DNA of 64,000 nucleotides from Asparagopsis taxiformis (Eukaryota; Rhodophyta; Florideophyceae; Bonnemaisoniales; Bonnemaisoniaceae), in NCBI GenBank assembly GCA_030407315.1, contig JALQPE010000931.1, positions 62,001-126,000 on the forward strand. The letters run 5' to 3'. The translations under genes were made by a program, and so were the position numbers. Positions within the stretch are counted from its first letter, which is position 1. Every line of letters starts with the position of its first letter. The notes below the pieces were generated by a model, which had not been told where the DNA came from, did no database searches, and was given only the letters and a program-made list of their open reading frames with translations. Positions 29,359 to 33,314 of the stretch are shown piece after piece.

Positions 29359-31512
29359 ATGACCAAGTCGACTACCTTCAACTACGACTCCACGGGCACC
29401 TCCCCGTGCGCTTCTATCAAAATGCTTCCCCATCCGCGTCCCTATCGACGTCACTCTCCCATTCCGCTTTCACAGTCCCTCCACGCTTCCAGGGCTGTCA
29501 TCAGCGCTGTTCTCGCTACCCGCGCACGCGCTGGAGACGACTTTCTAGCCTTGGCACGCGCCTCCCCACATGCTTTCGACCTCCACTCAACAATTCGAAT
29601 TGCTCCACTTCCGCGTCTCAATACTCCACCCCATCCACACACTCCTCACGATGCCACTTATTTTTCCACCCTCTATCGTTCTGCCCTGCGTCCCCTCCCG
29701 ACCGTTTTCGACGCAGAGACCCCCCCGAGCGTCTCCATTCATGACTATGTGGAAAGAATTGTCACCTATGGATGTGTTAGCAATGTCGTCTTTTTGTCCG
29801 CTATGATGCTTGTTGATAGGCTCTCTAATACCACCCCCTCCATGATTTTGACTACCTACAACATTCACAGGGTCTTCATTGCAGCATTCGTAATTGCTAC
29901 CAAGTTTCACGAGGATTCCTACTTTGCCAACACTTTCTTTTCTACTCTGGCCGGCGTTCCTACCTCGGAGATTAATGCGCTGGAAATGGCCATGCTTAAA
30001 ATGCTCAACTTCCGCGCCGCCGTTTCAGTGGAGCAGCTCGAGGATGCAGAATGCGTTCTCATGTCCGAGGCTTTCGACTCCTCCTGGGGACTCACCGTCT
30101 ACCAGACCTTGCGACAAGAGAACATTGCCTCCCTTGACCTTGCTGTCGCAGCCTCCACAACCTGGAATACCTACGAGAAAGTTCAAGACACTACTGGTAC
30201 CACTTCTATGAAGCTCGTCTCTGGTCCAGATGTTTTGCAACTACCTCCACTACACTTCCCGGACAACCAGTTGCACCCTGCTATTCAAGCTCTAGCTCTG
30301 GTGCAGGCCGAAGTGGATTTCCCCAACGTGGATCTTCTTGCCGAAATTGACCCAGAACCCGGCCTCGTCCCGCTCTATTCCGACACCGCCCTCTCTAGGT
30401 TCCGCAGACTCCGCGCGCTCGCGATGGGAAATGTTGTGGACACTATGCTCCCAGCCCTCGAGCGCCGCGGTTGTCAATTCGAATGGTCTGCAACCCACGA
30501 TCGTGGACCCGCGTACAACACAGACTGGTCGTATCGCGCGAGCGAATGGCAGCCACAGCAGCCTGACTGGTCTAAACCCGAGCCGTCGCGTGATTGGCAC
30601 CGTCCGGAGTGGACAAACACCATTAATTGGCAGCCACCGGCCACTACTTGGCAAACTCAGGACAGCAAGTGGCTCCCAAATGATACATGGGCGCCGCATG
30701 CACAGTCCGAGTGGCAGCGCCCTACTGAATGGCCAAAGGCGGAGTGGGAGCAGCGTCCCACCGCTGAGTGGTCTCACAACAAGACTGCCTGGCCTAATCA
30801 AACAACACACTGGTCACCCCGGCGAGACGTTACATGGGCGCAGCAGTCGGATTGGGTTGCCTCTTCTACTGCGGATTGGACACAACAAGGGAAGGGCGAT
30901 TGGGCTGCCCAGTCTAAGAATCAATGGACTCGGCCGACGCAGCCGAAAAGTGACTGGGTTGTTCAGGCAAAGAACGAGTGGGCAGCGCATACAAAAAGTG
31001 AGTGGACTCATGCAAAAGGTGAATGGACGGCGCAGGCAAGAAATGATTGGAATATGCAGCAGCCTGGTAGCGAATGGAGTAAGCAGTCAAGTGTTAACTG
31101 GGCTGCAACGAAGAACACAGACTGGGCAACGCAAAGTGCTGGCGAGCAATCTGTGCCCATGAATACAGACTGGCCGCAGCAAAACAATGCAGATTGGTCT
31201 GTAGATCGTGGAAACAGTTGGGCATATCAGCCAAAAGGTGAATGTGCTAATGAAGCTAGGAGCAGCTGGCTGCAAGAACACAGGAGTTGTTGGGAGCAGG
31301 AATCACAGAGCTCCAAGATTGAGCATCATGTGCATCAAGCGTCTTCCGATGTAGCGATGTGTAATGCGGCGGCACCTGCGCTGGGCTCAACGTCTCTAAA
31401 CATTCCGAGAGATCATTTTAGTAATGCGAAGGGTGTTGCAACTATGTGCGACAAACCGTATACCGATAATGTTCCCTTTTCGTTTTTCGAGAACTTTGGG
31501 CAGTATGTTTAA
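29359..31512 (+). CDS. PHO80-like (P/U-type) cyclin with a tryptophan-periodic tail
   Basis: 717 residues; Met22 is an alternative start. Residues about 120-222 are a cyclin box of the Pho80/CycP-U type: VSIHDYVERIVTYG, VFLSAMMLVDRL, IHRVFIAAFVIATKFHEDSYF and AGVPTSEINALEMAMLKMLNF. Such cyclins partner Pho85/CDKA-type kinases in nutrient signalling. Residues about 376-645 form a tail with 34 Trp in about 270 positions, mostly 7-8 apart and usually preceded by Asp, Glu or Asn, with Gln/Lys/Ser/Thr between. Toward the C-terminus some units have lost the Trp (GEQ, GEC). The final 70 residues are ordinary. The tail resembles no cyclin extension I know and is probably a disordered multivalent binding region. 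Confidence 0.85.
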   Translation: MTKSTTFNYDSTGTSPCASIKMLPHPRPYRRHSPIPLSQSLHASRAVISAVLATRARAGDDFLALARASPHAFDLHSTIRIAPLPRLNTPPHPHTPHDATYFSTLYRSALRPLPTVFDAETPPSVSIHDYVERIVTYGCVSNVVFLSAMMLVDRLSNTTPSMILTTYNIHRVFIAAFVIATKFHEDSYFANTFFSTLAGVPTSEINALEMAMLKMLNFRAAVSVEQLEDAECVLMSEAFDSSWGLTVYQTLRQENIASLDLAVAASTTWNTYEKVQDTTGTTSMKLVSGPDVLQLPPLHFPDNQLHPAIQALALVQAEVDFPNVDLLAEIDPEPGLVPLYSDTALSRFRRLRALAMGNVVDTMLPALERRGCQFEWSATHDRGPAYNTDWSYRASEWQPQQPDWSKPEPSRDWHRPEWTNTINWQPPATTWQTQDSKWLPNDTWAPHAQSEWQRPTEWPKAEWEQRPTAEWSHNKTAWPNQTTHWSPRRDVTWAQQSDWVASSTADWTQQGKGDWAAQSKNQWTRPTQPKSDWVVQAKNEWAAHTKSEWTHAKGEWTAQARNDWNMQQPGSEWSKQSSVNWAATKNTDWATQSAGEQSVPMNTDWPQQNNADWSVDRGNSWAYQPKGECANEARSSWLQEHRSCWEQESQSSKIEHHVHQASSDVAMCNAAAPALGSTSLNIPRDHFSNAKGVATMCDKPYTDNVPFSFFENFGQYV
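30484..31293 (+). repeat. Coding repeat: Trp every 7-8 codons
   Basis: About 34 degenerate units of the form (D/E/N)-W-x5-6 encoded in tandem. Codon-level divergence is high, so this is an old, selected repeat, not a fresh expansion. Confidence 0.85.
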
Positions 31513-32401: not shown

Positions 32402-32579
32402 TGTTGTAAACGAAGAAGTAGGATGCTAACGAGCGGAGCAATTTGCATGGGGGAAATTCGCGTGCTTTTCAGAAAAAGTTTTACACGAAATCTGGAGATG
32501 CAATCCACGTTGCTCGACAAGCAGCATCAACACGAAACCCTACAATCTTTCATTCGTCCGATTCGCCCACACGGACATG

Positions 32580-33314
32580 ATGGCATTTGTTATCCCTTTT
32601 CCAACTAGCACTCATGCTCACCAGGGGAAACGGATACACTCCCCCTCCAGACCCTACTTCCGAGTATCACCACGCGCCTTACAAGACAGTACGACAAGTC
32701 GATCTGGTGCCGCACGCAGCTCATCTGTCCAGTCTGGCGAAACATCTTTACTATCGCCACAAGCCGAAGCACTCATAGCTGCTCAAATAGCCCGTCCGAT
32801 ATTCGATGAAAAAACTGTAGAGCCCCATCTTGCCACCCTTTGCGCGCAAGCTCAGCAGGCTTCACGCTTTCTCACCAATGAAGAGTTGTCTACACTTCCC
32901 GAATCGGCTGGGACACAGGCTGCCGTTCTATTAGGTGAATCTGTGAACACAATTATTTCCAAAAGTAGTGAGCATGTACGCAAAGTTCATCCTGGTATTA
33001 CCGAGCCGGGTGGTGGTCTATATCCGCCCTTCCGAGCTACTGCATGCTGGAGAGACTTCTGGCAGTTCGTTCGCGTCGTCAGTTATGGTGTGGCTGCCGG
33101 AGGCGTGGATGTGTTCTCGGAAGAAGGTATGGATATCATGGAACGTATCTATCGTGAGCTAGAAGTGCCTCTTGATGCAATGATTACAGGTGTCACTTCT
33201 CTCAAGGTGCAGAGTTCGCTCGTTGTACAAAACGCGGAAAATGGGGAGGATATGATTGCGGTCACTGAAGCTGCTTACGGTGCACTGATCAACCGTTTGA
33301 CACGATTCACCTGA
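32580..33314 (+). CDS. Nuclear-encoded phycobiliprotein-family protein with transit peptide
   Basis: The second of two adjacent ATGs gives MAFVIPFP, matching the Phe-led red algal transit-peptide start; 244 residues. After a Ser/Arg/Pro-rich leader of about 55 residues comes a globin-like phycobiliprotein fold of normal length. ITEPGGGLYPPFRATACWRD aligns with the bilin site of allophycocyanin/phycocyanin subunits (PGGN.Y...R.AAC.RD), retaining the chromophore-type Cys and the following Arg and Asp (Cys156, Arg158, Asp159 from this start). Next come VRVVSYGVAAG and a helix ending ELEVPLDAMITGVTSLK, equivalent to the conserved LG.P..A....I..MK region. Phycobiliprotein subunits of red algae are normally plastid-encoded, so this is a divergent relative; bilin binding is possible but unproven. 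Confidence 0.82.
   Translation: MAFVIPFPTSTHAHQGKRIHSPSRPYFRVSPRALQDSTTSRSGAARSSSVQSGETSLLSPQAEALIAAQIARPIFDEKTVEPHLATLCAQAQQASRFLTNEELSTLPESAGTQAAVLLGESVNTIISKSSEHVRKVHPGITEPGGGLYPPFRATACWRDFWQFVRVVSYGVAAGGVDVFSEEGMDIMERIYRELEVPLDAMITGVTSLKVQSSLVVQNAENGEDMIAVTEAAYGALINRLTRFT

What the first reader, a model, noticed from the sequence alone, without database searches (positions are those of the whole stretch)
29359..31512. Cyclin fused to a 270-residue tryptophan-periodic tail
About 34 Trp spaced mostly 7-8 residues apart, usually after D/E/N, follow a PHO80-like cyclin box. Trp is the rarest residue, so this is strongly selected. Trp-spaced disordered tails can act as multivalent hooks (Argonaute-binding GW/WG proteins are one example), or form a phase-separating scaffold for the partner kinase. 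I know of no cyclin with such a tail.
Basis: partly seen in the sequence, partly recalled or inferred. Interest (0 to 1): 0.78.

Follow-up and report, generated by a model that had tools for sequence, protein, structure and literature searches.

The report
Red-algal cyclin with tryptophan-studded tail
A gene, probably from a red alga, joins an ordinary PHO80-type cyclin to a long floppy tail with a tryptophan about every eight residues; the DNA suggests the tryptophans are kept by selection, which hints at an unusual many-hooked tether for a cell-regulating kinase, though what it grips is untested.

Summary
One open frame (29359-31512, +, 717 aa) carries a PHO80-type cyclin box (PF08613, residues 103-219) followed by a 270-residue stretch (376-645) with 34 Trp, spaced about eight residues apart; 22 of 34 follow Asp/Glu and none touches Gly. 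The array is not a recent DNA repeat: third codon positions of Trp-phased units agree no better than chance, yet Trp persists. In a neutral simulation run to similar decay about 3 of 34 Trp survive in register and about 11 stops appear, so the Trp look selected. The only close database relative is a 99% identical protein; the paralogous cyclins read in this genome, two sister genes included, lack the tail. AlphaFold gives the tail no confident structure. Function is inferred: most likely a multivalent Trp tether that docks a cyclin-CDK on a partner with indole pockets, or makes it self-associate. The Argonaute-hook idea is weakened: no GW/WG, and the two intact Argonautes each keep one of four checked pocket residues. 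CNOT9, another Trp-pocket protein, is strongly conserved and is a better, untested candidate. The acidic activation-domain rule fails on charge. No orthologue or transcript could be examined.

The parts
29359..31512 (+). Whole open frame, 717 aa, cyclin-Trp-tail fusion (stop codon included)
   Evidence: near-identical full-length protein P0002 in the database
29665..30015 (+). Cyclin box, residues 103-219 (PF08613, PHO80-like)
   Evidence: Pfam E 3.3e-26; PHO80 E 1.5e-11; Foldseek PHO80/Pcl10 first
30016..30483 (+). Rest of the cyclin region and linker, residues 220-375; its first part aligns with two tail-less sister cyclins
30484..31293 (+). Trp array, residues 376-645, 34 Trp
30853..31293 (+). 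Second, more regular half of the array (last 17 Trp, W499-W645; 8-residue register with two lost sites Q597 and C629)
31294..31512 (+). C-terminal 72 residues without Trp, and stop
30998..31003 (+). Lone GTGAGT donor-like hexamer inside the tail; splicing not excluded without RNA data

Best explanation
A P-type (PHO80-like) cyclin whose C-terminal disordered tail is a selected, multivalent array of Trp side chains, with a local preference [K/R]-[S/T/N]-[D/E]-W-[A/S/T]-x-Q that is clearest in the second half. Shown: the fusion frame, the cyclin fold, the array, its regularity, the acidic -1 position, and persistence of Trp while third codon positions around it are at chance. Inferred: the cyclin box binds and activates a CDK, and the tail makes many weak equivalent contacts with a partner that accepts indole side chains, so the kinase is held at one complex or place. 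CCR4-NOT through CNOT9 is the better conserved of the two known Trp-pocket receptors that I checked, but binding to it is a guess. The second half probably began as a 24-bp tandem repeat and was then kept at the protein level.
For: Spacing and -1 acid bias. Third-position identity between Trp-phased units 0.262 against 0.276 expected from composition, first and second positions 0.396. Neutral simulation: 2.9 of 34 Trp in register on average (max 9), 11.4 stops (min 3), 200 runs; observed 34 and 0. In the near-identical protein none of six substitutions hits Trp and one (Q522E) adds an acid before Trp; with four in the tail the chance of missing Trp is 0.58, so this has no weight alone. Tail pLDDT about 30. 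CNOT9 is present with 414 bits to the human protein over 250 residues, and its Trp-pocket residues are said to be largely invariant in eukaryotes (PMC12819147, passages). One CDK with a PSTAIRE-like motif is encoded (L022).
Against: No partner, transcript, protein or orthologue was examined. The selection argument is intragenic and assumes either decay from an array or independent gain. The array is restricted to one paralogue of what looks like one species, which also fits a young, dispensable feature. AlphaFold places a low-confidence helix at 634-660, over the last two Trp. No pocket residue of CNOT9 was checked one by one.
Confidence: 0.45

Rival explanations
1. Self-associating sticker tail: the Trp make the cyclin-CDK oligomerise or condense, without a dedicated indole-pocket receptor.
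For: Aromatic stickers spaced in a polar, disordered, Q/S/T/A/N-rich chain almost free of other hydrophobics (F 0, L 2, I 1, M 2, Y 3, V 7 in 270 aa); mixed charge with K/R (26) and D/E (32).
Against: A preferred side for the acid (22 at -1, 2 at +1) and a preferred context point to recognition by a partner rather than to generic stickiness. No biophysical data.
Confidence: 0.2
2. Transcriptional activation-domain-like tail: [D/E]W units recruit coactivators, making the cyclin-CDK a promoter-bound regulator.
For: [DE][WFY] mini-motifs, acid first, are reported to contribute to activation domains (PMC10550315, passages); the tail has 22 [DE]W.
Against: 0 tiles of the protein meet the published rule (charge <= -9 and W+F+Y+L >= 7); tail tiles average charge -0.9 (lowest -4) and K/R sit at -3 of 12 Trp.
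Confidence: 0.12
3. Argonaute hook: the Trp insert into PIWI pockets and tie the kinase to small-RNA silencing.
For: Three Piwi loci, two with open frames; disordered polar chain rich in Trp; alternate Trp lie 13 or more residues apart in most of the array, compatible with the ten or more reported for AGO-binding pairs (PMC9262622, passages).
Against: No GW or WG (0 of 34). Neighbouring Trp are mostly closer than ten residues (29 of 33 gaps). L010 and L011 each keep one of four pocket residues tested in ALG-1; plant AGO10 keeps three. L012 was not tested.
Confidence: 0.08
4. Relic of a neutral minisatellite: a 24-bp repeat expanded in frame and is decaying without function.
For: The genome has 24-bp minisatellites that encode EWPPGSEA in one frame; the second half of the tail keeps an 8-residue register.
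Against: Third positions are at chance while 34 Trp and 0 stops remain; neutral decay to that point keeps at most 9 Trp in register in 200 runs.
Confidence: 0.08
5. Gene-model error: the tail is not translated with the cyclin (spliced out, or two genes).
For: No RNA evidence; one GTGAGT donor-like hexamer in the tail.
Against: 810 bases stay open in the cyclin's own frame and third positions are the free ones in that frame; a 99% identical full-length frame is in the database, itself a prediction.
Confidence: 0.07

Closest known systems
PHO80 / Pcl10 and other P-type cyclins (PF08613)
   Same: Cyclin box by sequence and by predicted fold
   Different: Carries a 270-residue Trp array; none was seen in the other P-type cyclins read in this genome
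GW182/TNRC6-type and plant WG/GW Argonaute-binding proteins
   Same: Many Trp in a disordered polar chain (Argonaute use of Trp; plant WG/GW examples recalled)
   Different: No Gly beside any tail Trp, tighter spacing, acid before Trp, cyclin fusion; Argonaute pockets here poorly kept
Trp-containing CCR4-NOT adaptors (TNRC6 silencing domain, Puf3) that use CNOT9 pockets
   Same: Disordered region with Trp; the receptor is conserved in this genome
   Different: Those have few Trp motifs; no RNA-binding or CNOT1-binding part seen here; binding untested
Acidic activation domains with [DE][WFY] mini-motifs
   Same: Acid directly before the aromatic residue
   Different: Near-neutral net charge; fails the published tile rule

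Membership tests
P-type cyclin (PF08613) | PF08613 domain above the curated cut-off | tested here: met
   92.9 bits, cut-off 21
P-type cyclin (PF08613) | Cyclin fold like PHO80 | tested here: met
   Foldseek rank 1-6 are PHO80 and Pcl10 chains, best E 5e-6; box pLDDT about 70-89, whole model 40
P-type cyclin (PF08613) | Binds and activates a CDK | not testable with these tools
   A PSTAIRE-type kinase exists in the genome (L022); no complex was modelled
GW/WG Argonaute-hook protein | Trp next to Gly (GW or WG) | tested here: not met
   0 of 34 tail Trp
GW/WG Argonaute-hook protein | Paired Trp ten or more residues apart | tested here: inconclusive
   4 of 33 neighbouring gaps are 10 or more; alternate Trp could pair
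GW/WG Argonaute-hook protein | Cognate Argonaute with Trp pockets | tested here: not met
   1 of 4 checked residues kept in each of L010 and L011; 3 of 4 in plant AGO10; L012 not tested, other pocket residues partly kept
GW/WG Argonaute-hook protein | Binds Argonaute | not testable with these tools
   needs a pull-down
CCR4-NOT (CNOT9) adaptor | CNOT9 present and conserved | tested here: met
   one Rcd1 locus, 402.7 bits; 414 bits to human CNOT9
CCR4-NOT (CNOT9) adaptor | Trp-dependent binding to CNOT9 | not testable with these tools
   needs a binding assay or complex prediction
Acidic activation domain | 39-aa tiles with charge <= -9 and W+F+Y+L >= 7 (with the diagonal term) | tested here: not met
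   0 tiles in the whole protein
Acidic activation domain | [DE][WFY] mini-motifs | tested here: met
   22 [DE]W among 34 tail Trp

The most novel reading that the evidence does not exclude
A new kind of kinase-targeting device: a cyclin that carries its own 34-tooth indole comb, each tooth a [D/E]-W unit often preceded by [K/R]-[S/T], reading a Trp-pocket receptor such as CNOT9 of CCR4-NOT so that a PHO80-type CDK is concentrated by avidity on mRNA decay or another machinery, possibly tuned by phosphorylation of the S/T beside the Trp.
Probability: 0.25. Interest if true: 0.8.

Novelty: new variant of a known kind. Interest (0 to 1): 0.52.

Why it matters
If the tail works as a tether, Trp-comb recruitment, known from RNA silencing and deadenylation adaptors, would have been bolted straight onto a cyclin. 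It would also be a clean object for testing multivalency: one uninterrupted frame, tail-less sister cyclins as natural controls, and 34 near-equivalent sites for graded mutation.

Tried and rejected
Recent microsatellite: rejected; one 2-copy 21-bp repeat only, third positions at chance.

Another frame as the coding one: the +1 frame ORF 30338-31162 (274 aa, TTG start) also looks periodic because TGG recurs, but the freest positions are the third ones of frame 0; over residues 376-645 frame +1 has 2 stops and +2 has 20.

Other Trp-periodic proteins in the genome: a protein search with the tail found only itself (5 candidates scored). DNA patterns starting GATTGG and GAGTGG gave 75 and 100 matches; the backward-read controls gave 363 and 32, so the first pattern is not enriched. 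Of each set 30 loci were scanned for Trp density: in the first only this gene stood out (18 Trp in 120 aa, next 9); in the second, whose 30 loci do not include this gene, the top was 11, in a TGG-rich frame. The other 45 and 70 matches were seen only as matched letters, apart from six minisatellite loci fetched. The GACTGG and GAATGG versions did not complete. A similar tail elsewhere in the genome is therefore not excluded.

Viral origin of the cyclin clade: 336 pattern stretches in viral contigs, none a relative by tblastn. Solved structures with a similar tail: one chance nanobody hit, E 0.54. Pfam on the tail: nothing at E <= 10. Bacterial-type promoter/terminator scan: nothing found, and not apt for a eukaryote. 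Tree: the first tree used gapped rows by mistake and was discarded; in the second, unrooted, nine rows, the split {this cyclin, C2618, C2426} against the other six has support 94/92, short of the tool's 95/80 star.

Literature: searches listed nothing on a cyclin with a Trp array (listings and abstract starts only; open-licence library only); one search was too loose to help. Papers seen as passages only: PMC12115072, PMC9262622, PMC5147811, PMC12819147, PMC7917804, PMC5303829, PMC10550315, PMC12026948.

Database limits: the protein searches admit only proteins of 0.55-1.75 times the query length that share 5-residue words; one search scored only the 7994 candidates sharing most words. That no red-algal orthologue appeared is weak evidence that none exists.

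Full report
WHAT IS THERE. The frame 29359-31512 (+) encodes 717 aa. Residues 103-219 match PF08613 at E 3.3e-26. The solved relatives found at E <= 0.01 are yeast PHO80 (1.5e-11) and Pcl10 (6.1e-5), and a Foldseek search of the AlphaFold model returns the same two proteins in ranks 1-6. Residues 376-645 hold 34 of the 36 Trp; the last 72 residues hold none.

IS IT MORE THAN CHANCE. Trp density is about ten times that of nine other window ORFs that I chose (34 of 270 against 58 of 4577). Spacing is more regular than in any of 100,000 random placements. Neighbour positions are biased: D/E at -1 in 22 of 34, K/R at -3 in 12, S/T at -2 in 16, Q/N at +3 in 15. The last 17 Trp have gaps 8,8,8,10,8,8,7,8,9,8,8,16,8,8,16,8; at the two 16s the register site is now Q597 (CAA) and C629 (TGT). 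The first 17 are less regular (gaps 5-9 and one 14).

IS IT SELECTED. Aligned on the Trp codon, the 34 units agree at third codon positions no better than base composition predicts (0.262 against 0.276) but agree more at first and second positions (0.396). The third base of the codon before Trp is nearly uniform (A 8, C 9, T 10, G 7), while its first two bases are mostly GA. A neutral simulation from a uniform 24-bp array, stopped at third-position identity 0.30, keeps 2.9 Trp in register on average (max 9 of 34), 5.1 Trp in all, and gains 11.4 stops (min 3) over 200 runs. Observed: 34 and none. Either Trp were kept through saturation or they were gained one by one; both need selection. This is an intragenic argument, not a between-species dN/dS, for which no DNA of a second lineage was available.

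RELATIVES. Three searches over 5.77 billion proteins return one near-identical protein (99%; six substitutions T89V, E464V, K475N, Q522E, A630V, T678M, none at Trp) and, in the first search only, two cyclins matching over 16% of the query, one of them named as from Hammondia hammondi. The window's assembly has 141,494,207 bases in 3156 contigs, close to the published Asparagopsis taxiformis L6 assembly of 142,472,235 bp in 3308 contigs (PMC12115072, passages). The species is thus an inference; a gene with a phycobilisome domain next door fits a red alga. The family search gives eight PF08613 matches: this gene, five other places, and a mirrored pair at C2618. The protein query adds a mirrored pair at C2426 and three places with E 1.2-1.3 that I did not read. 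In the open frames read for the other places no paralogue has more than two Trp; a tail beyond an intron would have been missed. The C2618 and C2426 cyclins align with this one in its N-terminal part and beyond the cyclin box and end in short acidic tails. The three group together with support 94/92 in an unrooted nine-row tree. The tail thus looks like a feature of one paralogue.

HOW IT MIGHT WORK. The tail is predicted without confident structure (pLDDT about 30; a low-confidence helix at 634-660; nine-row alignment). Trp in disordered chains are known to act by insertion into indole pockets, those of the Argonaute PIWI domain and the two of CNOT9 (PMC9262622, PMC5147811, PMC12819147, PMC7917804, passages only). 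I asked which of these receptors is intact here. The genome search gives three Piwi loci, two with open frames, one with a stop inside the match. By the printed alignments to human AGO2, L010 keeps P590 but has H, H and N at F659, K660 and E695; L011 keeps F659 but has L and G at K660 and E695 and a gap at P590. Plant AGO10 has P, K and E, with Q at F659 (positions read by eye). These four are the human counterparts of the ALG-1 residues P733, F802, K803 and E838, mutated together's paper; the human numbers are recalled, and all four fit one offset of 143. Some other pocket residues are kept (for L010 C691 and P700; for L011 F653, L694, Y698 and P700). CNOT9 by contrast gives one locus, strongly conserved. 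This ranks CNOT9 above Argonaute as a candidate and proves nothing about binding. The [DE]W units also resemble activation-domain mini-motifs, but the published tile rule fails because K/R balance the acids.

ORIGIN. The genome holds 24-bp minisatellites which, in one frame, read EWPPGSEA, i.e. Trp every eight residues after Glu; the six loci fetched carry 4 to 16 counted units with shared flanks, as in a dispersed repeat, and show frame-breaking length changes in at least some. They show how such an array can arise. Their unit differs from the tail's and no descent is claimed.

VERDICT. Real, apparently selected, unlike anything found in what could be searched, function unknown but testable. 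A new variant of a P-type cyclin.

Noticed in passing
window 32577-33314 (+): A 245-aa frame with a phycobilisome domain (PF00502, E 1.4e-28; residues 89-222; best PDB match an allophycocyanin, E 4.7e-14) and an N-terminal extension of about 88 residues, in what looks like a nuclear contig: a possible nuclear-encoded phycobiliprotein relative.
   Followed up: partly
L053 (G000:C2426:74000-79500): A sister cyclin lies in a perfect inverted repeat with arms of at least 2611 bp and a 116-bp spacer, G+C 0.38; real palindrome or long-read assembly artefact.
   Followed up: no
L054 (G000:C2618:44500-50500): The other sister cyclin lies in a 3.4-kb inverted repeat whose arms are 98.2% alike, G+C 0.40; two sister genes in two palindromes is odd.
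   Followed up: no
L087-L092: A 24-bp minisatellite (one frame reads EWPPGSEA) within similar flanks at six fetched places, 4 to 16 counted units.
   Followed up: partly
L012/L055 (G000:C1421, 21,937-bp contig): A divergent third Piwi gene with a TAA inside the match; pseudogene, intron or foreign contig not decided.
   Followed up: no
L035 and L044 (G000:C317:191411-191470 and C866:23049-23108): A protein with a hydrophobic segment and an acidic D/E tail carrying W and Y, the only other acid-W tail noticed among the loci scanned.
   Followed up: no
PMC12115072 (passages): The A. taxiformis paper reports a cyclin gene, AtaL6_9753, highly expressed in wild and absent in cultured tetrasporophytes; whether it is this gene could not be checked.
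   Followed up: no
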